Source of the DNA: Neopestalotiopsis rosae
Taxonomy: Eukaryota > Ascomycota > Sordariomycetes > Amphisphaeriales > Sporocadaceae
Reading direction: 5' to 3'
Assembly: GCA_023078685.1 (NCBI GenBank)
Contig: JALGAS010000004.1
Coordinates: 3,162,001 to 3,226,000, forward strand
Length of the DNA: 64,000 nt
Below, one piece after another: positions 5,473 through 63,685 of this stretch. Below the pieces are notes generated by a model, which was not told the DNA's origin, made no database searches, and saw only the letters and a list, made by a program, of their open reading frames with translations. Every line of letters begins with the position of its first letter. Within the stretch, counting starts at the first letter, position 1. The translations under genes and the position numbers were made by a program.

Positions 5473-6822
5473 CTAGATGTGAAACTTCCTGTCCAAAGAA
5501 CGAATGGCCTTGGCGTCCTGGTTGTTGTAGGGGTCGTTGGCCGTAACAGCAGCAAGGGCTCTGGGAGAACTGCTCGCGCTACCACTGCTAGCAGGGTTGG
5601 CACTGTTGGGCTCCGAGTTGGCGGGAGTTGGGTGGAGGAGTGCCGACAGGCTTGCCCGACTCGAAGGGTTGACGGTGTCTGAGCCGGCAGTTCGCGGCGG
5701 AGAGACGCTGTGCGTTCTCGGGGGAGTCAGGCGAGGAGCAGCAGTCGGCATCGCAGGCAGAGGCCCCTGAGGGTTACGTGCGCTGGTTGTTGCGATACGG
5801 GGGTCGATCATGACCGCATGAGCAGCAGCTTGTTGTAGCTGTTGGAGACGAGGAGAAGTAGAGGCGGCTATGGACTGGACAGGCGGGTATGCACTGACAG
5901 CAGCAACGGGAGGAAGCCTATCCTGCTCATATGGTGCTGGCGGTCGTGCGTACAAAGAGGATTGGCTGGAAGCAGATGTTGTGGGGGGAGGCAACTGCGG
6001 CAGTGGTTGAGGCAGAGGCTGCATGTGAGGACTGAGCAGGTGAGGCTGCAAATGCGGTTGAGGTTGCAATCTGGGAATGGCATGGGCTTTGGCATCCGGA
6101 GACATGCGTGGTACCCAAGGAGGAGTGCCACTGGGAGACGGTGGCCATGCCGCCATCCAAGCTGGGTGCGGCGGAGGCCAGGCGTAGGGGTACTGCGATG
6201 GTTCTGGAGGTGGAGGCTGAGTAGTGTATGGCTGCATAGGTGTTCTCGTCAAAGCGGGAGGGTTGCTGTCGTGCAAGCTCGACTCTGGATACATGCCCTT
6301 AGCTGGCACAATGTGTCGAAGGCTGGCATCAGAGGTCGGTTGTGGCAATTCCGGAGTGTTGTGCTGCGGCCTCGAGTAGTAGGAAATGAGATGCAAATGT
6401 TGGCCTTGCGAGGTTGTGATGCTGAAAGACTGCTTCATGAGACCGTCTGCCTTGTATCGGTAGCCCTCAGGCTCTCCGTCGGGATCCTCGTCACTATAGC
6501 GGCCGCTGTCCGGGGTCCTGCCGTTGCTGCGTCTCGAGTTGCCAAAGCCACTGCCTCTCTTGCCTTCCATTTCCCGGTATGTGAGGAAGCTGCCCGACAC
6601 TCTGCTGGCACTCCATGACTTGCCGTCAGTCCATCGGCGCATGCCAGCTTCTCTTTCATCCCACACAAAGACGGATCCGGATCTGATTGACTGCCTCTCC
6701 TTCTCTGATAACCGCCTCTGTACTCTGGGCAGAAGACCTAGTCTGCACGCCTCGAACAGCTTGATGGCGTCTGCGGGCGTCCGCACGAAGCCGTGATACG
6801 TCTCCATGGCCTTTGCGTACAT
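5473..6822 (-). CDS. WOPR-domain transcription factor, Pac2/Gti1 type
   Basis: This is a fungal DNA-binding regulator of the WOPR family (Wor1, Ryp1, Sge1, Gti1, Pac2), which controls morphological switching, conidiation, effector expression and secondary metabolism. The single-exon frame gives 449 aa. The first WOPR half is at about residues 6-85: TYHGFVRTPADAIKLFEACR, then LLPRVQRRLSEKERQSIRSG, then RRWTDGKSWSASRV. The second half, with QSFSI and HLISYY motifs, is at about residues 125-170, after a Gly/Arg/Asp-rich linker. The C-terminal 280 residues are rich in Pro, Gln and Ser and look disordered, which is usual for this family. The start could be Met1 (6822) or Met6 (6807), and METYHGF is the usual family beginning. 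Its wording is closer to Pac2/Gti1 than to the Sge1/Ryp1 branch. Upstream lies nearly 15.7 kb without genes. Confidence 0.94.
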   Translation of the reverse strand: MYAKAMETYHGFVRTPADAIKLFEACRLGLLPRVQRRLSEKERQSIRSGSVFVWDEREAGMRRWTDGKSWSASRVSGSFLTYREMEGKRGSGFGNSRRSNGRTPDSGRYSDEDPDGEPEGYRYKADGLMKQSFSITTSQGQHLHLISYYSRPQHNTPELPQPTSDASLRHIVPAKGMYPESSLHDSNPPALTRTPMQPYTTQPPPPEPSQYPYAWPPPHPAWMAAWPPSPSGTPPWVPRMSPDAKAHAIPRLQPQPHLQPHLLSPHMQPLPQPLPQLPPPTTSASSQSSLYARPPAPYEQDRLPPVAAVSAYPPVQSIAASTSPRLQQLQQAAAHAVMIDPRIATTSARNPQGPLPAMPTAAPRLTPPRTHSVSPPRTAGSDTVNPSSRASLSALLHPTPANSEPNSANPASSGSASSSPRALAAVTANDPYNNQDAKAIRSLDRKFHI

Positions 6823-22499: not shown

Positions 22500-24182
22500 C
22501 TAGCAATCACACCTGCCGTACCATCGAGGAAACGCTGTGGTATCTCTAATGGTTTGGACACCGGACAGGTAGCAAATCAACCGGTCGAATCCCAAGCCAA
22601 AGCCGCCGTGTGGTGGGCAGCCCCAGCGTCGTAGGTCCAGATACCAGTCGAGGTTATTGCCTACCGTCTTTTCAGAATCAGTAGTGCCAGGCACCTGCTC
22701 AGAGGCCGTCGTGTCAAGGCCGTTGAGCTTCATTGACTCGATCAAATTGTCTAGCCGGTGCTCGCGCATGGACCCTCCGACAATCTCGCAGAAATCGGGA
22801 ACGAGGAGATCAAAGCACTCCACAGTCTCACCAGGGGTCGTATTCCCGAGATCATTCTCGGCTGCCTTCATGTAGAAAGCCTTGAAGCTCCGCGGGTAAT
22901 GAGTGACAAAGACTGGTGTTTCCCCATTGCCAATGTGTGCTGCGAGGTATCGTTCATGCTCCGTGCGAAGGTCTTGCCCCCAGACCGGTTTGACTTCAAA
23001 CGACTCGTTCGAGGCAAGGAGGGCGTCGATCGCATCCGTGTAGGTGATACGAGGCCAGGCTTCCTTCACCATGAGACCACGCCAACGCCTCTCGACTTGC
23101 TCTACAGGAGCCATGTCGGCCGAGGACTCTGCAGTTCTGCTCGACATCTCCTTGACAGTTCTAGAACCGTGCAAATCAATGGCAACGTGCTTGAGCATAT
23201 CCTCCACAAGGCCCATAATGGACTCCATATTATCCGTGAAGCTCATCTCGGCCTCCAGCATGTAAAATTCGCTCAGGTGACGCGGGGTGTCGCTCTGTTC
23301 AGCCCGAAAGGTAGGGGATAATGTCCAGACATTTCCGAGAGCTTGTGCCAGAGCTTCTAAATGCAATTGTGCTGAGACTGTGGTGTAGACAGGACGGCGG
23401 TAGAAAGACTTTGCTGTTTCACCTTTAGGCTGCGGGCTCTCATCGACAGTAGAGACACCAAATACTTCGCCAGCACCCTCGCAATCCGAGGCGGTGAGTA
23501 TTGGCGTGTGAGTTTGCACAAACTGACGACTTTCAAAGAAGCGATTCAGAGATGAGATAACTTCTGAACGAAAACGCAGTAGTGTAGAGTTGAAAGGTAT
23601 CCTGGGCCTCAAGTGAGGTATTGACCGTAGAAATTCGGGACTCTGGTACTTCTTCTGCAGAGGGAATGTCTGATGTCATGTCAGTCTGACTTGTCCGTGA
23701 GCATGATGATTTAGGGGAAGAGGTAGATACCTTGGCGTCTGAAGCCCCAAGCACATTCGTCTTCTGAACTTGGAGCTCGTGACTCTGACCTTGTCCACGA
23801 GAGGCGACCCATGACCCGTGCAAACGAACGGCAGCTCCCGTTGTCAGACTAGATGGATAATATTAGTGATATTGGATCATATAAGAGTGGATTCATGGTC
23901 TAATTTGTCCCACCCTTCAGCTTGATCAGCAGGAACCACGGCCTGCAATGAGTCGATTGATGAACCGTCACCCAGAGACACGAAGGAGTGCTTCTTCTGA
24001 GCTCTCACAGAGCGGACGTATCCGTCGATCTCAATCCCCGTGGCTGGCTCTGAGGGTTTCCATTGCAAATACTCAGCTACCGTCCTGGGTAGCGTCGATT
24101 TGTGAGCTCTGGTGCCCTGCCAGCGTACCCGCAGCGCATGGCTGAATAGGGGCCGTCGCGTGGCGGGGCTGAGGATTGACAT
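22500..24182 (-). CDS. Asparaginyl-tRNA synthetase, mitochondrial type
   Basis: This class II aminoacyl-tRNA synthetase charges tRNA-Asn, probably in mitochondria (orthologue of yeast SLM5). Exons are 24182-23914, 23848-23731 and 23669-22500, with introns of 65 and 61 nt, giving 518 aa. The joins restore family text: the first gives AEG-LTTGAAVRL and the second gives SDAK-TFPLQKKYQSPEFLRSIP. An N-terminal OB-fold anticodon-binding domain (residues about 35-130) precedes the catalytic core. Motif 1 follows HLRPRIPF, motif 2 is RHLSEFYMLEAEM, and motif 3 is GLGFDRLICYLSG followed by TIRDTTAFPRW. The start at 24182 gives an Arg-rich presequence (SPATRRP, RVRWQGTRAHK) that fits mitochondrial import. 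An in-frame ATG at 24224 would add 14 residues. All core motifs are present and no lesion is seen. Confidence 0.94.
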
Positions 24183-34830: not shown

Positions 34831-37800
34831 TTACCAATAGGCAGGTCGAAGTCCGCTGAAGTTGCCCAACGTACTGGCGAGGTTCTCGTCACCATCCTTT
34901 TTCCGATGACCGGCAAGCTGATAAATATTCAAGTTAGTCTTTCCGAGCGCAAAATACAATGGATTTATTGTCGAACGGCCGATGGCGGAACGCGACTTAC
35001 CTCGAGTTGCACACCCTTATGTAATGATACGAGCCAGTCGACGTAGCTCTGAGCTTCGTTGTTCCGATCCTCGACCAGCATTCTCGCAAACTCGAACTCG
35101 GCTCCGTCGATACCTTGACGAGCCAATTGGATTGTCAGAGCCTTGGAGCCACGAAGCGTTTTCAGAAACTCGATAATGTTTCGGACTTGGGCATTCAGAT
35201 GAGTATCCAGTAGCGGCAGGCTCGAGCTATACGGGTCCAGAGCCTTGAGACTGTCTTTGCCCTCACCAAAGAGGTCGGCCAAGAGATTGGGCGATGTTTG
35301 GCTATGGAACCAAATGAGACACTGCTGGCCATTATCGACAAGATACACACCACCGGGCTCAACGCGCGAAAATGATGCACGGAGACTTGGTGGCACCTTG
35401 AGGTGACCATTCTCATCCGGAAAACCGTCCTCAGCAGTGAGATTATGTATCGGGATCATGCGTGGATACAAGTAGACACTGAGCTCACCAGCACCCATGG
35501 TTCTGACCATGCGCATCTCATGTATCCTGCGATCTGAGCTCTCATTCCCGCCCTTGAATGCACGGCATTTTAGAAGACCGAGCATGTACATAGAGAACTC
35601 TTTGAGTCTCTCGGGCATAATCAGCTGGCCCGGAGGGTGTGATGATGTCGTCAAATTCTTCCTGTAGTTGGCCAGTACATCAATAGTTCTCTCCGTAAGG
35701 AGCTGCCGAGTCTCTTTCAGTGTTGCCGAGGTTGTTGCAAGCTTAGTGGCGGCTTCCTTTGCTAGGATCGATACAACAGCATCTTGATCAATCATCTTGA
35801 CACATTCTCTAGTCACCTCGCTGACACTGGCAATAATGTTGCAGCACCGGACGCGCCGTTGACCTGAAGCTGTCGTATACAGAAGCGCAGACTGGAAATG
35901 GGCGTCCAGCTTGGCATCGAGCTTGCCATCATATCCAAAAGTCACTCCGATGGCCTTGTCGGCGTCAATGACTCCAATCTCGAGATCCGCACCAAAGGTG
36001 TGTTGCTGCAAATTCATTAGACCAGGTTCCAAGTACGTATCACTCAAGTAGCCAAACTTACGAGGAATGAACCATGATAGTCCTTGATTTGAAGACCATT
36101 GGAGCACCGAACCTTCATCAGCGCCTGGTATCCAGTCTCTCTTGTCACCGTGTGCTTGATCTCAAGCGAGAGTTTAGCATTGTCTCGGCCCGCCACGAAG
36201 TTGGGATAGTAGAATGTTTCTCCACCGGTCAAGGAAGCGACGTGCCCAATGGTTGCAATATCAAGATAGCCACCAGATGGTGCAGCGAGGAAGAAGTCGA
36301 CACCAATTCCTGAAGCCACCATTCTTTCGGCGGTTTTCTTCCAGCCAGGATGCTCGGCCGTGTACAGCTTCTTGTCTAGCTCTCCGCCCGGGTGCTTGCC
36401 ATCATCGCGCATAAAGAGTCGGCCAGGACCCCACGTCGGAAGTGCTGATAAAGAGCAGATGACCTTGCCGCCAGTTTTCTCAAGAGCGGCGATGGCTGAG
36501 TTGAGGGTAGGCAGTAGGGCGGGTTCTGGGTTCTTGACGCTGGAAAACAGGGTGGGCAATCTGGTGAGCAAGGATGTGATGACTGCTCTGGACTCCACGG
36601 GATCAACGAAGAGGCCGTCGCTGAGGGGCACAAAGGGGTCTTCCACATCTGGCATGACCATCATCTGAGGCTGTTCTAATGATGCCTGTTGTTTGATTAA
36701 TAGTTGTCTAATCATCGAAGCAATATCAAGACTTACATGGCAGCTGTAAAAGTGAATTTCCTTGTCATAGGTCACGAAGCCTACTTTGGCGCCCTGGGGC
36801 AACACCCGTTTTGGCTCTCCATTTTCATCTACCTCATCTTCACCTGCATACAGCGAGGACAAAATACCTTCACAGAAAGCTTCAAGGAAGCCCTTGTTGA
36901 AAGCTTCTTGGGTGACATCGATCAAAAAGAGCCAATTGAGACCAACAGGCTCCTTGGTCCAGTACTCTTTCGGAACCGTGAACTCGACTGTGCCACGACA
37001 CAATTCAGGGCGCTGGTCTCTGTCCACTCTTACGCCTTGGGGCGTAGTGGCACAGAAATATTCCGATGGTGTGTCATTGGGGTACGTGCAGAGATTGCAC
37101 ACGAACTTTCCGCCACCATTTCTGAACACCATGAAAGGATTGATCTGTTCACGAGTTGTTAGTCTTGTTTACCTCTTATTTGCAGGATTGTGTCCGGAAA
37201 GCGGGGCCGCCATCGTCATCATCAGAATGGCCAAGTATGACCCTTTTCGGGAGCTGCTTTTTCGGAGATTTTCAAATTCAGCGAAGATAGGACTCACGCT
37301 GCGGGGTCTAATTAGCATTTACCAAAAGATAGATCTACGGGGTATCTTAAGCGGACTAAACATGAACATGTTTGCTTGAGATCCAGCTGGTGGATCTCAA
37401 GCCAAGCCAGTTCCTGGAAGAGAGTGACACTTACTAGGCTCTACATCTCCTGCATCTTGGCGGACCAACGTCACCAAAGTCTAATACGGGTACTTCGAGT
37501 TCGCCCGGCTGGAGTTTCGCCAAAGGCTGAACAAGCATACCAAGGGGCAGACCAGTAGTTTTCAACCCTTCCGCCGTCGCAGGAATATTATTCATGGTCA
37601 GCCTGGTGAACTGAGGGGCAGAGTTGCCCTGATCATAAGAGACAAATGATGTCGCGGCGGGAGGCGGCACATGACGCTCGAATGTAGGATACGTGTTGTT
37701 CAGGTAGAACTGCTGGGGCACGTCTCGCGAAACGGGCACGCTGGGAATATCGTCGGGCGATACCTGACCGGCGGCAGACGCTGGAACAAATGCAGACTGA

Positions 37801-38372
37801 GGACCGGCGTCGGCAGCTCCGTTCCTGGCAGCAAACTCGGCGGGAGAGGCGAGCGCAGGGTTGAATGGCTGGTTGGAGGGCGCTGGGAATTGGTTCGCGA
37901 ATTGGCTCGGGGTGCCTGGCTGTCCTAGGAACTGACCACCTGCTTGAACTGACGGGTCGGCATTGAGGAATGCAGTCTGCGACGTGCCGGCAGGTGGTAT
38001 TCCATTGAATGGCTGTGAAGAGCCAGCGGCTTCAACGCTATGGAAGGCATGCCTGTCCTTCTTCTTCTTCCTCGCTCCGTGTTGCGCTGCGTCCGCAATA
38101 CCCAAGCCAGCCATCTGAGAAGTCAGGTCCGCCTGCCCAGCGTATTGGTCTTGACCCTGCGGCGCTCCGTATCCCGGCGCACCACCTGGGGAGGGAGCAC
38201 CATAGTATTGCTGCTGGGCCTGAGGCGAAGGCGATCCGAATTGTTGCTGATACTGCTGCTGGGCGACATTTGGTGCGAACTGGGGCGGCGCGGGCTGACT
38301 GGTTCTGTTCGGATCGTTGGGATCGAGCTGTTCGCCTTGGCCGAGCGAGTGGTACATGCTGTAGTCGGCCAT
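34831..38372 (-). CDS. SEC24: SEC24, COPII coat cargo-binding subunit
   Basis: Sec24 pairs with Sec23 in the inner COPII coat and selects cargo for vesicles leaving the endoplasmic reticulum. Exons are 38372-37435, 37298 (one nucleotide), 37144-36737, 36685-36062, 36005-35001 and 34917-34831, giving 1020 aa; each of the last four exons is a multiple of three. Residues 1-200 are Gln/Pro/Gly-rich (QQYQQQF, QAQQQYYGAPSPGG). The zinc finger is at about 305-340, with CRRC and CNLC as Cys pairs. The trunk contains LNWLFLIDVTQEAFNKGF, the beta-sandwich block contains QHTFGADLEIGVIDADKAIG, and the gelsolin-like end contains YLVDNGQQCLIWFH. The last exon (QLE-LAGHRKKDGDEN) ends PAYW. The 51-nt intron at 36736-36686 is in frame without a stop. 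Introns are 136, 153, 51, 56 and 83 nt. Confidence 0.96.
37298..37298 (-). other. SEC24: Predicted one-nucleotide exon of SEC24
   Basis: On the minus strand the sequence reads acceptor CCGCAG, then a single C, then donor GTGAGT. The preceding exon ends GCC TA before GTAAGT (donor at 37434). The next exon begins ATC AAT CCT after GAACAG (acceptor at 37145). TA + C + ATC gives Tyr-Ile, restoring the conserved CRAYINPFMVF segment. Intron 1 (37434-37299, 136 nt) has TGCTAATT before its acceptor, and intron 2 (37297-37145, 153 nt) has ACTAAC. Direct joining would read TA-A, a stop. The splice signals are seen; the splicing itself is inferred. Confidence 0.85.
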
Positions 38373-39352: not shown

Positions 39353-42204
39353 ATGTTCACATTTACACCATTACAAGGCGCCAAGTCGGATTCCACGGCA
39401 GTTCAATCTATCCTCGAGCTCGATGGCGGCGTAAAGGTCCTCGTTGATGTGGGTTGGGACGAGACTTTCGACCCTCAGCAGCTCAAAGAACTGGAAAAGT
39501 ATGCTTCTTTGTCTATAGCTTCATACGTCTGCCCGTTCTTACTGACTTTTCTTGCAGACAAGTGCCGACTCTCTCCCTCGTTCTTCTCACTCACGCGACC
39601 GTCTCCCACCTTGGCGCATTCGCTCATTGCTGCAAGCACCTGCCTCTATTTACGCGCATTCCCGTCTATGCGACAACACCGGTGATCTCCCTCGGAAGAA
39701 CACTTCTACACGAGCTTTATGCCTCCACGCCCCTCGCCGCTACTACGATTCCCAAGTCGTCACTTAACGAAGTCTCATACTCGTACAATGCTCAGGCTGC
39801 GGCAACAGAATCCAACATCCTTCTCCAGCCGCCTACACATGAGGAGATATCGAAATATTTCTCATTGATCAATCCGCTCAAATACCTCCAGCCGCATCAA
39901 CCACTGGGATCCCCATTCTCCCCACCACTAAACGGCCTCTCGATCACCGCATACAACTCTGGTAGCACTCTGGGTGGAACTATCTGGCATATACAACATG
40001 GTCTAGAATCCATCGTTTACGCCGTGGACTGGAACCAGGGTCGCGAGAATGTCTACGCGGGTGCTGCATGGCTAGGTGGTGCCGGTGGTGGCGGTACCGA
40101 AGTTATCGAGTCGCTACGGAAACCAACAGCCCTTGTTTGCAGCAGCAAAGGAGCCACAAAGTCATCACTGCCGAGGGCGAAGAGAGACGAACCTCTACTC
40201 GATACGATAGAAAAGTGTGTCACGAATGGTGGCACGGTGCTCATACCTGTTGATTCAGGTGCAAGAGTCCTAGAGCTAGCCTATCTTCTCGAACACGCAT
40301 GGCGACGCCATGCTTCTAGCAACGATGGCAAACTTCATGCTGCCGAACTCTATCTTGCTGGGCGTAGCATACACAGCACCATGAGATATGCTCGCAGTAT
40401 GCTCGAGTGGATGGATGAGCGAATCGTACAAGAGTTCGAAGAGGTTGCAGATGGGGCTAAGAAAACCAACGGAGCTGCCGACAACGCGAACCAAGCAAAA
40501 CAGGGAGGACCCTTCGATTTCAGATACTTGAAGTTACTCGACCGGAAAGGCCAGGTCGACAAAGTGCTTTCAAGAGCGAATGGCGAGGGTTCTGTCGGCA
40601 GAGTCATACTAGCTAGTGATGCGAGCCTAGAATGGGGTTTCTCAAGAAATGCCTTCAAGGCGTTGGTGCAAGACCCCAAGAACCTGTTGGTTCTCACGGG
40701 ACTCCCCTCCCCGCCTGCTGATGGATCTGCAACCATGTCCAGCATCTTTCACAAGTGGTGGAAAACTGCGGTTGAGGAAAATGGAAAGCATGGCGCTGAT
40801 GCCGTTGGAACCGGTATTGGAACGGATGGAGCACTTATTCAAGTCCTAGGTGATGGTCGGGAGGCAACACTACGAAATGTTCAGAAAGAGCCACTCGAAG
40901 GCGACGACCTTGCAGTATACAGGTTTTGGCTTGCGCAACAACGTCAATTGCAAGATACGTTACAGACTGGTGGTGCTGAAACGCTTGATGCGGGCCTCGA
41001 TATTGACGATGCTTCTTCAGAGTCCTCGTCCGAGTCTGGAGATTCCGAAACACATCAGCAGGGCAAAGTCCTCAATGTCGCTGCAACGCTGGGTAGGGCA
41101 ACTCGAAAGAAGGCTGCTCTAGCTGATGAAGACCTCGGACCTAATATTTTGCTGAAGAAGAAAGGTGTCTATGACTATGACCTTCGTGGCAAAAGCGGTC
41201 GGGACGCCTTGTTTCCTTATCCAGTTCAGCGGAAACGAACAGATGACTATGGCGATCTCATCCGACTTGAGGACTTCCTGAAGACTGACGAACAGCAAGA
41301 AGAAACAATGACTGGAGACGATGATGGCAAACAGGAATCTCAAGATAATCTCGGCAAGAAGCGCAAGTGGGCGGACTCCGCCGTCAACACTGGTCCGACA
41401 TCGGGAACTGAGAAGCGACCGAAGCTCGAACCCAATCTGTCAGACGAATTTGAACTGTCTGTTGTCGACGGGCCCATTAACAATGAGCTTGACGACGTGC
41501 CAGATGATGAAGAGGAGCAGGACGTCAACTCAACAGGCCCCTTTCGACTCAGTATCACTACGGAACAAATTGCCGTGGCCATGGGCATCACTTTCATCGA
41601 CTTTAGTGGTATACATGATAAGCGAAGTCTCCACATGCTTATCCCTCTCATTCAACCCAGAAAGCTGGTTCTTACTGGCGGTAGCGCCTCGGAGACGGAT
41701 GACCTCTCGGTAGAGCTGCCAAAATTGTTCCAGTCTCAGATCGATATCTTTCTGCCAGAAGTGGGTGCATCAGTCGATGCATCTGCAGATACCAATGCTT
41801 ATACGGTCAATCTGGCACCTGCCCTTGTCAAGGGCCTCAAATGGCAGGATGTTGGAGGTGTCAAGATCGCCACACTCGTTGGCCGACTGTCTGTAGCCGA
41901 CGAAGCCAAGAATCCGATCCTCGATCTGCCCGCCGCACTTACAACTGGACTGACAGCAACGCACTCGGTTACTCCCTTCCATGTGGGCGATCTTCGATTA
42001 GCGAATCTCAGAAAGGATCTCAGGGATAGTGGGTACACGACAGAGTTCATGGGAGAAGGTACATTACTAGTCCAGAACTCAGTCATTGTCCGAAAAGCCG
42101 CCACTGCCGGTCGCATTAGCGTTGAGGCGGCAGGATGGGAGACTGATACAGTCCAGATGGTTAGAAAAATGGTGTATGAAAAGCTGGCCGTCGTTGGGCA
42201 CTAG
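39353..42204 (+). CDS. CFT2: Cleavage and polyadenylation factor CFT2 (CPSF100)
   Basis: Cft2/Ydh1 is the pseudo-nuclease partner of Ysh1/CPSF73 in the mRNA 3'-end cleavage and polyadenylation complex. Exons are 39353-39498 and 39558-42204, with a 59-nt intron (GTATGC to TTGCAG), giving 930 aa. The join reads KELEK-QVPTLSL. The N-terminal metallo-beta-lactamase domain begins MFTFTPLQGA. The site where active family members have HxHxDH reads THATVSHLGAFAH, so the zinc ligands are degenerate, as known for CPSF100. The beta-CASP region follows (LILASDASLEWGF is read as VILASDASLEWGF). An acidic Ser/Glu linker lies at about 525-545, and a basic nuclear-signal-like patch (KKRKW, KRPKLE) near 635-655. 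The C-terminal domain contains KSLHMLIPLIQPRKLVLTGG-like text. No disruption is seen. Confidence 0.95.
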
Positions 42205-42510: not shown

Positions 42511-43988
42511 TTAACAAGCAAGCAACCAATTGTCAGTTTGCCGTCTCATTCCAACGTTGCTGCCTAACGGAAACATTAGGTCGAAGTCGCCGCTGAAGTC
42601 CCGGCAGTCCCGAATTGCAATAGGGGGGATCTGGGGATCACATCCCTTTCTGTCAACATGATCAACCCCTGCGGTTATCCATCGCAAATAGTCACTCCCT
42701 GTGAACGTCCATTCTGGTGCTACCGTGTTGGGAATGCAGCGAAGAATCCGCAATGCCACGACAAAGAGTTCCGGTTTGTCGGCATCCAGGCACAAGTCGA
42801 GCATGCGCGCCATCTGGACATAGAGGAATTGTTCGGCTCTGAAGAGTTCCGGCTCAAAATTCCATTTTTGAAGGATCCAAAGAGCGTTACTGGGACAGCG
42901 AGCCAGGATCGCCGCCTTGAGCGACAACATCCCCAGCCTTGTCCCTGCACGGCTGTTCGGCCATCCTTCCCAAGTTATTTTTCTTCTGACACGTGAGAGT
43001 CGAAGGACTGTGCAGCGGACGATAAGGTCCATCATACTATGGCTCCCCTCGTGAGTGGCGGCTATGAAAATAGCTCCGTCTCCCTCGAGGTGATAGTAGC
43101 GAAGACTACACATAAAGATACGCATCTCATGAATTCTCCTAAAGACAGATTGCATTTGAGCGAGAACAGCCAATTTCTGGGCACTCAACAGCGCGACACG
43201 AAGACCTGAGACTCTGACCCTCATGTCATAAATCCACGTGTGGGAGATCAAGTACTTGGCCAGCTCTTGATGGCCAGCAGTAATTGCCAAAGTGAGAGGG
43301 TTATGCGCCATATGCGCCATTGTAGGTACGTCGGTATAGAAGCGTGATCCGAACACAAGATCAAGGCTCGGTCTTCCTGCAATTTGTCCTATGGTTTGAC
43401 GTGGTACAATGACATAGGGATCGTGGTAGCAGCCTGCCTGGTGAAGGAGCTTCACTACCTCGATATGACCGTTCTTTGCGGCCAAGAGTAGCGGAGAGTA
43501 GCCCTCGGGGTCCTTCATATCGATGTAGGGCGGCCACGATGCCTGAGCCGCGTTGCAAAATCTTTCGACGCGGATCACGTCTCCTCGTTGAGCTGCGGCA
43601 TGAAAAGGACCGCGTAAAATATGATGGACGGTCTCGCACCATTGATAGTGGCGGTCCTTAACTTCGGTCCAACTTATGTACAGTTTACAACGGCAAAACG
43701 TGCGGGGCGAATGGACAGCCTGTGCAAGAAGGACGTCGGCGATGTAGACTTCGTCCTCGAGCAAATGCCAGAGTGAACGGCAGGCGCTGGCAAGAGAGAA
43801 GAGATCTAATCATACACCGCATATCAGTATCGTGGAAATGGAGATATTCGACGAGAAAAAATTGCCGAGTGAGAGCACATACCTCGAGGATCATCGATAT
43901 GGTTCCTTCCAATACGCCACAACACATCAAAGGAAAGGGCCATTCGCTGGCGTGCAGCTTCCTCAATCACCTGTTCAACGTTAGACAT
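42511..43988 (-). CDS. Ankyrin-repeat protein with F-box-like N terminus
   Basis: Exons are 43988-43883 and 43805-42511, with a 77-nt intron (GTATGT to GATTAG), giving 466 aa. The join reads NHIDDPR-DLFSLASACRSLWH, a Leu/Cys pattern reminiscent of fungal F-box-like domains (residues about 15-60). That label is tentative. At least one well-formed ankyrin repeat is visible at about 140-165 (EGYSPLLLAAKNGHIEVVKL), preceded by a degenerate repeat (GPFHAAAQRGDVIRVERF) and followed by a third-like segment (HNPLTLAITAGHQELAKYLI). The second half has no recognised family and contains several Cys and Trp residues. Such proteins often act as substrate receptors or scaffolds in fungi; nothing here shows a partner. 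The alternative downstream Met at 43764 would lose the N-terminal domain. Confidence 0.75.
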
Positions 43989-49191: not shown

Positions 49192-52100
49192 TTACCGAAC
49201 CCTATAAACACGGTTCTTTCTCTTGAAGTACCTAAATAGGTCCTCCAGCGTCTCAAACCCCACATGCGTGACCATGTATTTATTTGTGAGATCGCGGACA
49301 TGATCGATCTCTTGCATCTGTAGTTCAGGTAGCAAATCAAAGACCGAGTCCTCTTCCACACGGTCATCTCTCACCTGGTAGATCGAGCCATGTTAGCCAA
49401 CATCAAGGCGGAGTATCTGTCAAGGATTTATACTTACAATGGTATCGCCGACCACGAACAAAGCGCTGGTGTGCCTCGTGATGCTGAGACAGATCCTGGG
49501 TTCGGTGACCATGAACCCAGGCCCCGACTTTTGGTTCACAGCCAAGACCAAGACGACCACTTGGCCCTCCTGTCCTTGAAAGGCATCAATGGTTGAAGCA
49601 ATGACACGATCTCCATTCTTCACGCCGCGGCGGATTGCCTTACGTAGTCGCCAGAGATTTGCATCGTATGGAGTGATCACCACTACATTCTCTGGTGCTA
49701 TAACGCCCTCGTTCTCGTTGAGCATGTCCCGAATGAGGTCGACTGCAACCTCGTTCTGTTTGTCGTTCCATCGGGATCCATTTTCATCGGTGACGCACTT
49801 TCCTTCACATTCCAGAAAGACAGGCAAAACTTTGCCCTTGGGAGACGTGAGGCTATACTTATCCTCGGACCAAGTCTTGAGTTGGCTGGCGACAGGATTA
49901 TTGACCAGCTGCGTGGACTCGGCGTAGGTGACGTCTTCGATATGCGGGTAGATCAAGTCGCGTGCAACGTCAAAGAGACCGTGGACTATGCGCTCCTGTT
50001 TGTTCAGAACAAGACAAGGATAACCAAAGTTCTTCAAGTGCTGCAAGATGGACACGGCCGCGTGCCGAGCAAAGTTGTTTCGTTTATGCTCGGATACGAC
50101 AACGCCAAGCTGCTTCTCGTCGCCGGCCATGGCGCACATTCGGCACGTTGGGCCCCAGACCATCAATGCGTCGGTCTTGTGCAAACCACCTGCTTCGTCG
50201 AAGACTACGGCGTCAGAGTTGTCTCGGTATTCCTTGTATAAAGAGTTTCCACTGGCATGAGGTGTGGTCGCCACAAAGTCAGCGCCGTTGACAAGGTCCT
50301 GCAATAGTGCTTCGACCAGTGACCATTGCTGGGGCTCCCTATCGGCATCTTGTACTTTGCCCCTGACAAAATGTCGCAGCCTTTTATAGTCATCATGCGC
50401 CCGGAATTTCTGACGCATAGTGAGAAGGACTTCGGCTCTGTCGTGATAAGCTAGTACATATGAGCCAAAGCCGACAACCTTGAAGAGCCACTCGCAAGGT
50501 GAAAGAGTGAGATCATTCTTGGCGGATCTCTGGGTCCGGGTGGGCCCCGATGATTCTTGATAATGATTGCGTATCAAAAAGAAGAAGTTATCAGTCTCTT
50601 TCTTCAAGGAGTGACGGCCGTGAAGGACCAAGGGGGAGCCCCACACGCCATTTCTGACAAGCTCGATGCCGAGGTCGCGAATGCGCACCGCGATATTCTT
50701 TACGGCGACACGAGAGGGTGCACTGATGTAGACATGGTCCACTGTTGGACAGGCGTTGAATAGAAGAGCCACCATGGCAAGCAGACGTGTCTTTCCCGAT
50801 CCAGCGAATCCGGAGATCCCTACAAGACCAAGTACACAGAAGTCCAGATACCTGCACAAGCGCTCTCTGCTGTCTACAGGCAGCATCTTGCATAGAATGG
50901 CATTTGCCCTTGCCCTATTGGAATGCCTCAGGATGTCGATACGAGGGGGCTTGATCAACAATCGATTGCCTAGGTCCATTGTAGCCAGCTGCGACATGAG
51001 CGCTTCTTTCTCCCGATCATCTGCAATTGTTGGCAGAGGTGGCCGCTTGAGGACACTGGTAAAGGAATGGCCCTCCATAAAATCTCGCAAGTACCAGTTG
51101 AGACAACTTTTATGGTAATTCTTTGCAAGGTCTGGGCCTCCTTGTACTGAAGAGTCGAAGTCGAAAAGATCATTGGCAGTATCAACTCGTTGTTTGGCAA
51201 CATCAGAGAAATCATAAAAGGAGACGTAGACCGTGTCCGGAAAGGGGTCGTCATCTTCAAATGCATTATAGAATTGAGGCTGCGCATGTCCGCGCCAGCT
51301 GAAAGAGCCGGGCGAATGAACTTTGATGACCAGGTGATCCGAAGCTTCGCCGTCAAGGACATCGGGGCCTTGGACATGGCCTCCCTACAGGTCATTGCCC
51401 TGGCCCTCTAGTGCTGACCGCCAGAATCCGATTTGAACAGACGAGTGTGGCTTTGTAACGCGCTCAATTGTCGATGGGTATTTATTCTAATTTTCAGCAC
51501 GTATCAGCAGCTTATAAGGCAACGGTAATGGAGTATTGAAAAGTCGAAGTTGAACGACACTCACCAGTTGGCCATTCTCGATTACGACAAAGTATCCTTT
51601 CCAGCTGCGTCGAAGGCCCTCGTTGTCGGCATAAATGAAACGACATTTGAGCGGCAATTTTCGTATAGCTGCCACATTAGTGATGGTGAAGTGGTTGTCC
51701 TGCACCACTGACATAGCCAGTGATGTCAAACAAGCATTTTTGTCTTGATGATACTCGGGCACCTTGTACTGTTCATCAACAGCAGATTGAGTGCTTAATT
51801 GTCTGTCGTATCGAGAAAGATCCCAAGCATGCCTGAAAGAGACTTTTGTCAATACCCTGAGGAATAAGTCAATCGTGTATGGTCTTGACATACAAATTTC
51901 CGAATCGGTAAGTGGCGCCTTGCACTCTGTTCTGAGAAATCTCGAAGTTCAGTGCGATCTTTCCAGCAAGTTCTGAATCCGACGAGAAAATATGGAAATC
52001 CCTCTGGCTCACGACTTTGTACAGAGTACTGACATTGTCGATCTTGGTTCCTTTATTGATGTAACCATCGATTTTCGTATCAATTCCACGGAACGGAATG

Positions 52101-59352: not shown

Positions 59353-62235
59353 TTAAATGCCCGAATCCTCCTGAACAATGGCCTTGGCAGTCTGGTATTC
59401 ACTCCAAGCCTCACAAGTATCTTGCAGACCATCGGTATCGACAGTCTCCATGATCTCGCTTGACCGTTCAATGAACTGTAGAGCGAAACCTTCGCTGGTG
59501 TGCCAGCCAATGTGGCAGTGCATGAGCCAAGCTCCGGGGTTGTCGGTATAGAAGGCAATAGCCACATAGCCGCTACCGGGAAGCATGGCGACGTCTCTTC
59601 GGGGTGGGTTATCAGTATTAAGGGTGATGCTGTCATCGAATGAACCACTGCCCTGGGCGAGGATGACGAAGTCATGGCCATGAAGATGGATAGGGTGGGA
59701 GACGGGCATGTTGGTCTCGATAACGAGATAGACCCAAACGTTGGCTTCATCCAAAGTGATAACTGCGTTGCTGTCCTCGAACTCGGTGACGTTGTTGTAG
59801 AGTTGAAGCAGAGACGGGTCAGCCCAGTCGGTAATCATAGTGGTAGAGTTGACTATTGGGGTCCAACGCGTTAGTGATATGATTAGATCATAATGAATCA
59901 TGCGTAACTTACGGAACCATCTGAATCCTCCACCGTTGTAAGGAGAGACTGAAGCTACTTCCACTGTTCCTGTGTTGCTGAGGGTGACTGTCTGAGAGAC
60001 GTAGGGCACAAGGTTATCAGTCTCGTCATCGCAAGCGTCGGTGTAGTCATAGCCGGTTGTGGTCGGGAGAGTGTTTGAGCCCTCATAGTAAATGGCACCC
60101 TTGATGTTGGTCTTCATGGTGTTGGTACTGCAGCTAGCCATTGGGATACTGCGCATCCAAAAGCTATCGGCGACCGCAGCCTGGTCTGCTGTGACGATGA
60201 CATCGTAGCGTTGGCCTGTAATATTCTTATCAGCACTTTGTATTTGATTACCAACATATGTGCTCATGGTGTATCTTGACTGAGCTCAATGGAAGGCTTC
60301 AAGGCACAAGGGTTCTTACCTCCTCCAAGAGTAATGATCTCGGCAGTATAGGGTACAATGGGAACAAAGTCACTAGCAATGACGGTAAGAGTGTGGTTGT
60401 CGATGCTAAACTTGAAGCTAGAGTCAATGGCTCCGTTGACGATCCTCAGTCGATACGAAGTACCAGGGGTGAATGTCGTGTTCCATCGTTCTCCCGTCTG
60501 CGAACTATCGTCATCATCTCCGTACACGTTCATGCCGTTGATCAATCCGTTGTCTTGGTTTGGTGGACCACTTGTCTCAGCTTGGATGAAAAGCTCATCA
60601 GGAGTCTGATGAGTCCAATCGTTCAAGAAGACGATACCGGCATCCACGTCGTAGTTGGCCGTTGCTGGACCGTTGATGACGATGGGACCGAACACGCCTT
60701 GCCATGCCTGAAGAGCAAAGTGCGAGTGATACCAAGAAGTACCGTATTGGGTGGCCCGCCATTTGTAAGTAACACTGTTTCCGGGAGGTACGGGGCACTG
60801 GGTAATAGACGAAACTCCATCCTGGTCATTTGTGTAGTTTTGGCGAATTCCATGAAAGTGCAACGAAGTTCCGTTCACGGAAGTGGTCAAGGCGTTGGTG
60901 AGATGAACAATAACATTGTCACCTGGTGTCATGGTCAGTAAAAGTCAGAAAAGAGGAAAGAATGGAAAGCCACGAACCCCAATCAGCAGTAATGGTGGGA
61001 CCTGGGAAACTGCCGTTGATGGTTTGTCCATATCGGGTGACTCCGTCAGGAGCAACAGTGCCTTCAGTAAGCTCAAACCAGTATTCACGGGTAACACCAG
61101 TTTCTGGGACCTCAGTGTAGTAGTCGGTGGAAATATCGAAGTCATCACCCCACTCAGAACGAGTTGATGCCGTGTTACCGAACGTAGGTGATGCAGTCGA
61201 CGAACTGGTAGTAGAAGACACGCTTGATGATGAGGCGCTTGATGATGAGACACTTGCAGTGGAAGCAGTTCCAGAGGAAGCAGAGCTAGTGGAAGCAGTG
61301 CCAGTAGAAGCGGTTCCAGATGAAGCAGTACCGGAAGAAGTGGTATCGGAAGAGGCAGTGACTGAAGAGGCAGTACCAGTAGAGGCAGTGCCAGAGGAAG
61401 CAGTGCCGGTGGAAGCAGTGCCGGAGATAGCACTGGAAGAAGCAGTTCCAGAAGAGGTATTGGCAGTAGAAACAGTTTGAGTGGAGGCGGTTCCGGAGGA
61501 AACACTTCCAGTAGAAACGGAGCTGGAGGAAACAATGCCAGAGGAAGCAGTACCCGAAGAAGCAGAGCCAGATGAGACAGTACCGGTAGAAGCAACGTCA
61601 GAGGAAGCAGCTCCAGAAGAAACGGTGCTTGAAGAGACACTTCCAGAAGACACGGCGCCAGAGGAAGCAGTGCCGGAAGGAGTACTGTCAGAAGAGACGG
61701 TACCAGACGACACAGCTCCAGAAGAAACAGTATCAGAGGAGACTACTGCAGAGGAGATATATCCAGAAACAGTTCCAGTGGAGGCTTGTGCAGAAGAGGC
61801 GCCGACTGAGGTAACAACAGCCGAAGAGTGAGTTACCGATGAAGTGCATGTCGTAGAGACGCTTCCAGAGTGGCCATTTGTACCCTCAGAAAATGATACA
61901 GATGAGGGCGAAGCATTCTCAGAGGACTTGACTCCATAACTTGAGAATGATATAAAAGACGACTCTGATGGACGACTTGGAAGACCGGAGTCTGATACAG
62001 AGACTACCGAAGACTGGCTTGCCTTGGTAGAGTCGGATGGGTGGCCGCTAAGAGTTAAAGTAGGAGAGACGGTGGCGACGTTGTGGATTAGAGTTGAAGC
62101 ATAGTCGACCGTACCTGATATGGCAGATACGGTAGAATTGCTTGAAAGTGGTAAACGAGAGTGTTTATGGCAGGCTGCGTTGGCAAACGATGGAAGAGAG
62201 AGCAGAGCTCCGGCTGAAACTAAAGAAAACAACAT
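59353..62235 (-). CDS. Laccase with long Ser/Thr/Ala-repeat N-terminal domain
   Basis: A multicopper oxidase that oxidises phenols while reducing oxygen to water, outside the cell. Exons are 62235-60978, 60922-60320, 60215-59913 and 59852-59353, with introns of 55, 104 and 60 nt, giving 887 aa; family members are usually about 580-620. The signal peptide is LFSLVSAGALLSLPSFANA. Residues about 25-350 are Ser/Thr/Ala/Val-rich with SSGTA/SSGTV-type repeats at 148-350. The laccase core then starts near DISTDYYTEVPETGVTREYW. All four copper signatures are present: HFHGI, WYHSHF, HPIHLHGHDF and HCHIGWHTSEGF. The residue ten after the Cys is Phe, the high-redox-type axial position. The C terminus is DSGI, the ascomycete laccase plug. 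Intron joins restore GPTITADWG-DNVIVHL and GGG-QRYDVIV. A TATA-like box lies about 100 bp upstream. Confidence 0.95.
61180..61790 (-). repeat. Degenerate 15-nt repeat array in the laccase gene
   Basis: The array encodes imperfect five-residue units (SSGTA, SSGTV, STGTA, SSGAV) in tandem. On the opposite strand the same DNA reads as an open VEAVPEEAVP-like frame, which is a shadow. Such Ser/Thr arrays are usually O-mannosylated and vary in copy number. Confidence 0.85.
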
Positions 62236-63685
62236 TATGAAAGAACGAATGACTACCCGAACACAGCGATTCGAGAGAATGCTAAAGGAATGGACCGTTG
62301 AGATGGTTTCGAATTGAGGAGGAAAACCTCTGAAATTATTATACACGCGGGCCGTCGACCATGATGCTCAGTGTCCCGCTCGGCTATAGTGATCTAGATC
62401 CCGGGACAAGCCCCGACCGACCTCACTAACACCGAGAGGCATTGCTCGGAAGATGTGGGCTAGACTTTGCGAAGCTCTGAGCGTTGCGACCTGAGATCGC
62501 GGACCTGAGATTCGTGAATCCTTCTACCGTAGAATATGTGGAAATACAAGGTTACGCGTATTCATCGACTATTCTTGGAGCTAGCCATCGACTGAACACG
62601 AACTCCAAGGCTCCGTTCCGCTGCTAGCGCCAATGCTTGTCAACCCTCCAGCTTTTAGATGACATCCTAATCCGAAAAATTCGAGAGATGTTGTGGATGA
62701 ATCAGGAGCAGTGTGGACACCTGCGCAAAGCACTTGGTCCACCGTCTCCCGTATTCGACCTCTCTTCATAGAACCCCATGTCGCGGGGAGGTCCATGGAG
62801 GAGGCCTGCATAGGCAGTATGGGACCCACGCATAAATGGGGGGAGATGGATAGCCGCGGCGGAAAGATCTGCAAGATCTGCACAGTTTATTCGGTAGCCG
62901 CTGCAATCCAGATCATATCCCACACACATTCCCCTGATTTGCATCTACAAGGATTCAATTGGCCCATTTGTCTTCTCATTATTACTATGATGATTGAACT
63001 TTCTGCAATATCAAAACCATTACCCGTCACTGTAGACTTAATCATCCGTTGGAGCATTTCCGACAAGACCTCCTATTATTTTCGCTTGCATTCGCGTCCA
63101 GATCCACTTAGCTTCCAGCTCTGTCGACTAGTCTCTCAGCGACAAGAGGAAAACACGCAGGAATTCCGACGATACCATTCATAGCGAATGGTCTCGTGTC
63201 AGTGCGCTAGAATCGACTCGACTGAGACTTACCTAACTAAAAATGGACTACCGTTAAGGCCCGTGTGCTCGATAGAGTTCGGAATATCTGCCAAGGCCAA
63301 CGCTGGAGCCATGTTCGGTTACGGCTTCCGGGGTCCCCTAAGCGTCTCCGAAGCGTCGGGTCCTAGTACAATAGTAAAATAAAATGCATTCTGGGCTTTT
63401 GTCGATCAAAGCTTTAATGTGCTGCGGTAGAGCAAATACGATCAATTAGTTCTATGGACGCGTCATCTCAGAGGGAGCGTTCTTGGCATCGCTGAGTCAC
63501 GAGGGCGGAAGTCATACTTCGCAAAGTGTTATCCAGATATATACGCAGCTATTTCATTGCGCGCCTATTGCCAAACCAGATTACTGCAAACTGGCGATAA
63601 CATCACACTCATTTTTTCACCGACTAACTACAAAGTTTTCTTCTCATTCATTCGTTTTATCGTATTTCTCATCTCTTTGTTTACA
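62236..63685. other. Divergent intergenic region right of laccase
   Basis: Promoter and leader of the laccase gene on the left, promoter of the possible small gene on the right. A GTCCCG...CGGGAC inverted pair lies at about 62371-62406. The open frames at 62581-63184 on both strands lack domains. Confidence 0.45.
62336..62343 (-). promoter_or_regulatory. TATA-like box of the laccase gene
   Basis: TATAATAA on the minus strand lies about 100 bp before the laccase ATG at 62235. Position and sequence are suitable; no other core element was recognised. Confidence 0.45.

What the first reader, a model, noticed from the sequence alone, without database searches (positions are those of the whole stretch)
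37145..37434. One-nucleotide exon in SEC24
The 290-nt gap between SEC24 exon 1 (ending GCC TA before GTAAGT) and the next coding exon (ATC AAT CCT after GAACAG) cannot be one intron: direct joining reads TA-A, a stop, and shifts the frame. Inside the gap the minus strand reads CCCCGCAG, C, GTGAGT at 37304-37292. Splicing in that one C (37298) gives TAC ATC, Tyr-Ile, which exactly restores the conserved zinc-finger segment CRAYINPF. Both resulting introns (136 and 153 nt) have good donors, branch sites (GCTAAT, ACTAAC) and acceptors. The total CDS (1020 codons) is then in frame. Single-nucleotide exons are extremely rare (one was reported in Arabidopsis APC11). They challenge exon-definition models and are missed by most gene predictors, which would report a broken or truncated SEC24. 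Skipping the base creates an immediate stop, so the site could also act as an on/off switch.
Basis: partly seen in the sequence, partly recalled or inferred. Interest (0 to 1): 0.93.

Follow-up and report, generated by a model that had tools for sequence, protein, structure and literature searches.

The report
One-nucleotide exon in fungal SEC24
In a fungus closely related to Pestalotiopsis, the SEC24 gene has a gap that no ordinary single intron explains and that one lone C between two sets of intron signals puts back in frame, so this single letter is very likely an exon of its own, a rare gene structure that gene finders miss.

Summary
SEC24 (minus strand, 1020 aa) has a 290-nt gap that cannot be one intron: direct joining reads TA-A, a stop. 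Splicing in C 37298 restores the conserved CRAYINPF. Of 31 enumerated in-frame single-intron paths none has a GTRNG donor with a YAG acceptor. Of 5 two-intron paths only the lone C has strong sites, and only it gives Tyr-Ile. Such a strong site arose in 10 of 20,000 shuffles.

A 1020-aa ORF, 3 residues different, from a 3513-nt contig (the unspliced gene is 3542 nt) has CRAYINPF. It shows that the mature frame holds Tyr, but not which DNA letter supplies it. The closest annotated genome (Pestalotiopsis NC0098) is mis-joined here and includes intron tail.

Two relatives in the same clade encode CRAY followed directly by what reads as an ordinary donor. The 1-nt exon therefore likely arose when a 136-nt intron appeared one base upstream of an older donor. 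An assembly error is the main rival and was not excluded by reads.

Nuclear 1-nt exons are already in print (Arabidopsis APC11; Fusarium CYP621A, 2026, with reads). This is a new member of a known kind with an unusually readable origin. The on/off-switch idea found no support.

The parts
37435..38372 (-). SEC24 exon 1 (938 nt), ends GCC TA inside the Tyr313 codon; carries zinc-finger Cys307 and Cys310
   Evidence: sequence and frame
37299..37434 (-). intron 1, 136 nt, GTAAGT...GCTAAT...CCCCGCAG; likely the later, inserted intron
   Evidence: sequence; no other copy found in the genome; origin inferred from relatives
37298..37298 (-). one-nucleotide exon, C, third base of the Tyr313 codon TAC
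   Evidence: only strong-site in-frame path; chance 10 of 20,000 shuffles
37145..37297 (-). intron 2, 153 nt, GTGAGT...ACTAAC...GAACAG; likely the older intron
   Evidence: sequence; relatives encode Tyr followed directly by GTN
36737..37144 (-). SEC24 exon 3, starts ATC AAT CCT (INPF); carries zinc-finger Cys329 and Cys332
34831..36685 (-). rest of SEC24: exons 36685-36062, 36005-35001, 34917-34831 with introns of 51, 56 and 83 nt; stop TAA 34833-34831
37371..37405 (.). inverted repeat in intron 1: 15-nt arms, 93% complementary, 5-nt loop
   Evidence: role unknown

Best explanation
The C at 37298 is most likely a genuine one-nucleotide exon of SEC24, joined between TA of exon 1 and ATC of exon 3 by two ordinary GT-AG splicing events. 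Shown by sequence: the direct join hits a stop, and the lone C is the only enumerated path with strong splice sites and restores the conserved zinc-finger segment CRAYINPF. Inferred, order of splicing: the acceptor AG of intron 1 and the donor of intron 2 are one base apart, so two spliceosomes probably cannot use both at once and the introns would be removed one after the other, as in stwintrons; removal of intron 1 would change the second donor from CAGC|GTGAGT to CTAC|GTGAGT. Inferred, origin: relatives read as having an ordinary intron directly after the Tyr codon, so the lone C with the GTGAGT behind it is probably the old exon-intron border, and intron 1 appeared later between TA and C.
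For: Direct join stops. 0 of 31 single-intron and 1 of 5 two-intron in-frame open paths have a GTRNG donor and a YAG acceptor; only the lone C gives Tyr-Ile. Chance 10 of 20,000 shuffles. 118 of the 120 listed homologues keep C..C[RK][AST]Y[IMVL]NPF. P0001: complete 1020-aa ORF with CRAYINPF, 3 residues different, longest contig 3513 nt against 3542 nt for the unspliced gene. P0002 of Pestalotiopsis sp. NC0098 (94%) reads RRSMSQINPF; the ORF P0253 on a 115-kb contig, identical to P0002 over 138 residues of exon 3, begins MSQINPF, so P0002 holds intron tail and lacks CRAY. Exon-1 ORFs P0121 and P0122 read CRAY-VRSQ and CRAY-VRVINTLM and fall in the same clade as the window (8 rows, 97/97).
Against: No read or DNA junction was seen. 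P0001 is a protein of another strain and would read the same if that strain had plain TAC|GTAAGT. The members of the P0001 cluster (14) may include fragments. AG-C-GTRAGT is not enriched in the genome (174 against 447 for the control). Order inside the clade is weak (80/53 for window, P0001 and P0002). The reason for the failed Seiridium model P0003 is unknown. Intron 1 has no relative in the genome that would show its source.
Confidence: 0.88

Rival explanations
1. Assembly error: a C was lost from the assembly and the real DNA is GCC TAC GTAAGT, so the gap is one phase-0 intron of about 290 nt and the AG-C-GTGAGT inside it is chance.
For: Single-base deletions are common assembly errors (recalled). 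P0121 and P0122 read as Tyr followed directly by a donor. The Tyr of P0001 fits this too.
Against: A usable strong AG-Y-GT site giving Tyr occurs in 10 of 20,000 shuffles. There is no homopolymer at the place. The separately sequenced Pestalotiopsis sp. NC0098 is mis-joined at the same place, which a plain TAC|GTRAG would not cause. The other three introns of the gene are 51, 56 and 83 nt.
Confidence: 0.06
2. Origin by loss and rescue, as proposed for Fusarium CYP621A: a base was lost at the end of exon 1 (TAC to TA) and a cryptic AG-C-GT in the existing long intron was taken up to mend the frame. The one-nucleotide exon is real, but its origin differs from the intron-gain reading.
For: Proposed in print for a fungal 1-nt exon (PMC12940212). 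Relatives read as Tyr followed directly by GT, so GTAAGT of intron 1 could be the old donor. Intron 1 has no visible source.
Against: It needs a broken intermediate in a gene expected to be essential (recalled), and a ready-made strong AG-C-GTGAGT with the right base (10 of 20,000 shuffles). Gain of an intron at the donor of an older one is documented for stwintrons (PMC5639578 section 8).
Confidence: 0.3
3. Regulatory switch: skipping of the lone C is used to turn SEC24 off.
For: Skipping gives an immediate UAA. A regulated micro-exon is reported in Trichoderma (PMC11121469, abstract).
Against: Retention of intron 1 stops at the same codon (UAG), so the stop is nothing special. No protein ending at CRRCRA is among the 320 fetched, though the listings were capped.
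Confidence: 0.03

Closest known systems
Fusarium CYP621A one-nucleotide exon (PMC12940212, parts 1 and 2 of 3 read)
   Same: Nuclear fungal gene, one-base exon between two GT-AG introns inside a conserved motif, missed by most gene models
   Different: Base is G, central base of a Gly codon in a P450; shown by SRA reads in two species; origin there proposed as loss and rescue
Arabidopsis APC11 one-nucleotide exon (PMC4674806, part 1 of 3 read)
   Same: One base (A) needed for the frame, constitutive
   Different: Plant gene, shown by cDNA and by constructs in protoplasts; a 422-nt span there
Donor-splitting stwintrons such as [D1,2] and [D2,3] (PMC5639578 section 8 and passages; PMC9024468, PMC12403724 and PMC6616335 passages)
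   Same: Two stacked U2 introns at one place, consecutive removal, inferred gain of a new intron at the donor of an older one, in Pezizomycotina
   Different: Here the inserted intron lies one base outside the donor, so a base of exon stays in the mRNA; the outer intron has a complete donor
One-base exon between mitochondrial rnl group II introns (PMC12308204, passages)
   Same: Two introns at neighbouring sites leave a one-base exon, in fungi
   Different: Group II introns in a mitochondrial rRNA gene, not spliceosomal, no reading frame

Membership tests
Nuclear single-nucleotide exon | One base flanked by a usable AG acceptor and GT donor | tested here: met
   CCCCGCAG-C-GTGAGT at 37306-37292
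Nuclear single-nucleotide exon | The base is needed for the reading frame and no other good path exists | tested here: met
   0 of 31 single-intron and 1 of 5 two-intron paths have strong sites; direct join stops
Nuclear single-nucleotide exon | Transcript with exactly that base at the junction | tested here: inconclusive
   P0001 protein has Tyr at the place, from a contig shorter than the unspliced gene; nucleotides not seen, other strain
Donor-splitting stwintron | Internal intron interrupts the donor sequence (GTRAGT) of an external intron | tested here: not met
   Both donors are complete; the split lies one base before the donor
Donor-splitting stwintron | Consecutive excision in a fixed order | not testable with these tools
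   No RNA intermediates available
Introner or repeated intron | Similar copies elsewhere in the genome | tested here: not met
   only the place itself (and, for intron 1, its own inverted repeat) matches at E up to 10; the search skips very common words
SEC24 | Sec23/Sec24 zinc finger, trunk, beta-sandwich, helical and gelsolin domains | tested here: met
   on pieces of the gene; Sec24C is the best solved relative

The most novel reading that the evidence does not exclude
Stacked introns form one series: a new intron can appear at the donor of an old one at different offsets. Inside the donor it makes a stwintron; one base outside, it makes a single-nucleotide exon. SEC24 of the Pestalotiopsis lineage would be a case where the before state (Tyr codon followed directly by the donor, in relatives) and the after state (TA, new intron, C, old donor) are both readable, so that one-base exons can be born by intron gain and not by mending a lost base, and are spliced in a forced order.
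Probability: 0.5. Interest if true: 0.72.

Novelty: new member of a known kind. Interest (0 to 1): 0.6.

Why it matters
[quoted passage not shown] This one lies in a core secretion gene, inside a zinc finger that fixes the frame, and its relatives seem to keep the earlier state, so both the origin and the order of splicing can be tested. It also shows a concrete annotation failure: the published models of two genomes of the same family are broken at this junction.

Tried and rejected
Intron 1 as a copied element: no other copy in the genome. Intron 1 as a decayed copy of the exon-1 tail: a loose alignment was reached by 37 of 500 shuffles, but 192 of 3000 random window segments score as well, and 893 to 1741 of 3000 with other gap costs; dropped. 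Intron 1 and intron 2 as duplicates: 499 of 500 shuffles reach the score. The comparison of joined pieces that scored 48 is an artefact, because both inputs held the same stretch. RNA folding of the introns: z -1.36 and +1.09, nothing unusual. Relatives in viral contigs: 22 pattern matches, none a relative. L003, another zinc-finger hit, reads like Sec23 (recalled), holds ILNPFW, and was not used. Rfam and tRNA scans of the window found nothing. A scan of the other YAGCGTRAGT sites for further 1-nt exons, and the count for YAGTGTRAGT, were planned but not done, because the machine did not answer; whether this genome has other one-base exons is unknown.

Full report
What is there. On the minus strand the window carries SEC24: exons 38372-37435, 37298, 37144-36737, 36685-36062, 36005-35001 and 34917-34831, giving 1020 residues and a TAA stop. 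Pfam finds the Sec23/Sec24 zinc finger, trunk, beta-sandwich, helical and gelsolin domains on pieces of the gene, and solved Sec24C aligns over residues 234-990. The genome is a 53.77-Mb, 17-contig assembly. The nearest named SEC24 is from Pestalotiopsis sp. NC0098 at 94%, family Sporocadaceae. The species of the window was not identified.

The gap. Exon 1 ends GCC TA, the 290-nt gap starts GTAAGT, and exon 3 starts ATC AAT CCT. A direct join gives CRRCRA-stop. I enumerated GT-AG paths with 150 nt of each flanking exon open to shifts and introns of at least 35 nt. Of 31 in-frame, stop-free single-intron paths none has a GTRNG donor with a YAG acceptor. With the outer sites fixed, five two-intron paths are open and in frame; only the one-base C has both strong sites, and only it gives Tyr-Ile without an insertion. 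In 20,000 dinucleotide shuffles of the gap, 10 hold a YAG[C/T]GTRAGT in a usable place and 156 do with the looser donor. In the whole genome YAGCGTRAGT is found 174 times, fewer than its reversed control at 447, so the motif itself is not enriched.

Protein evidence. Of the 120 homologues listed (of 1233 matches), 118 keep the segment C..C[RK][AST]Y[IMVL]NPF. Without the Tyr the Pfam zinc-finger score of a 100-aa piece falls from 64.9 to 52.1 bits. P0001 is a complete 1020-aa ORF with CRAYINPF that differs from the spliced model at 3 residues. Its longest contig is 3513 nt, while the unspliced gene from ATG to stop is 3542 nt, so it comes from a spliced molecule. I read its source code lgn as the Logan assembly of the SRA, whose proteins were called by Prodigal on contigs (PMC12424806, passages); that reading of the code is mine. 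P0001 shows the mature frame, but as a protein it cannot tell a one-base exon from a strain with plain TAC|GTAAGT. The 14 members of its cluster may include fragments and are not counted as transcripts.

Broken models. The two exceptions among the 120 are P0002 (Pestalotiopsis sp. NC0098: RRSMSQINPF) and P0003 (Seiridium cupressi: DFGEINPF), both annotated genome proteins of the Sporocadaceae. P0253, an ORF on a 115-kb contig that is identical to P0002 over 138 residues of exon 3, begins MSQINPF. So the MSQ in P0002 is the end of the intron, and the model drops CRAY to keep a frame. A plain TAC|GTRAG would hardly cause that, so NC0098 probably shares the split codon. For Seiridium the cause is unknown. 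Truncatella (P0007), of the same family, has the segment intact; whether it has an intron there is unknown.

Origin. Exon-1 ORFs of two relatives run on from Tyr into what must be intron: P0121 CRAY-VRSQ-stop and P0122 CRAY-VRVINTLM-stop. Back-read, this is TAY, then GTN, then AGR or CGN: an ordinary donor directly after the Tyr codon. The third base of the codon is not known from the protein. P0254, from a contig of the same length (4243 nt) as that of P0122, reads VVTLQ before INPF. The other 118 of the 120 rows listed in that search (of 375 matches) read straight through the segment, some on long contigs such as P0124 (14 kb) and P0132 (167 kb); the length limits of that search favour read-through forms. 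In a tree of 22 exon-1 proteins the window, P0001, P0002, P0003, P0004, P0007, P0121 and P0122 form one clade (97/97), with weak order inside it: 80/53 for window, P0001 and P0002, and 86/82 for P0121 and P0122. The simplest history, inferred, is: no intron; then one intron after the Tyr codon; then a 136-nt intron between TA and C in the lineage of the window. The lone C and the GTGAGT behind it would be the old border. The alternative proposed in print for CYP621A is loss of a base and uptake of a cryptic exon (PMC12940212). It needs a broken intermediate and I rate it lower, but DNA of relatives is needed to decide. Intron 1 has no other copy in the genome, and a relation to the exon-1 tail or to intron 2 is not significant.

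How it likely works. Both introns have branch-like motifs whose A lies 13 or 14 nt before the last G of the intron (GCTAAT, ACTAAC) and standard donors. With one base between the acceptor of intron 1 and the donor of intron 2, two spliceosomes probably cannot hold both at once. Removal would be consecutive, as in stwintrons, which are argued to arise when a new intron appears in a splice site of an older one (PMC5639578, section 8). The order was not tested. Skipping and retention of intron 1 both stop translation after Ala312 (UAA or UAG), so a failed splice is simply null; no sign of a switch was found.

Rivals. The main rival is an assembly deletion of one C at the end of exon 1. It explains P0001 equally well, and is held down by the shuffle test and by the independent failure in NC0098, not by reads.

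What is known. One-base nuclear exons: Arabidopsis APC11 (PMC4674806, part 1 of 3 read) and Fusarium CYP621A with SRA reads (PMC12940212, parts 1 and 2 of 3 read). A one-base exon between mitochondrial group II introns is described in fungi (PMC12308204, passages), and a placozoan mitochondrial one is in the search listing (PMC5436844, listing only). Searches for one-base-exon terms, microexon with fungi, Pestalotiopsis with microexon, SEC24 with intron, fungi and microexon (15 of 88 listed) and intron gain with microexon listed no report of this one. Only an open-licence library was searched, and the listings were read as titles and abstract starts. The finding is a new member of a known kind.

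Noticed in passing
window 37371-37405: Intron 1 holds a near-perfect inverted repeat (15-nt arms, 93% complementary, 5-nt loop) that folds into a 12-bp stem; no copy elsewhere in the genome.
   Followed up: partly
P0002 and P0003 (related loci, no window place): Published SEC24 models of Pestalotiopsis sp. NC0098 and Seiridium cupressi are broken at this junction; the first includes intron tail and lacks a zinc-finger Cys pair member.
   Followed up: partly
window 39454-42204: Next to SEC24 and diverging from it, a gene with Lactamase_B_6, Beta-Casp and CPSF100_C domains, a cleavage and polyadenylation factor subunit 2.
   Followed up: no
window 5473-6822, 22500-23612, 42511-43764, 49420-51090, 59353-62346: Other ordinary fungal gene pieces: Gti1/Pac2 regulator, class II tRNA synthetase, ankyrin repeats, AAA_11/AAA_12 helicase-like ORF, multicopper oxidase pieces.
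   Followed up: no
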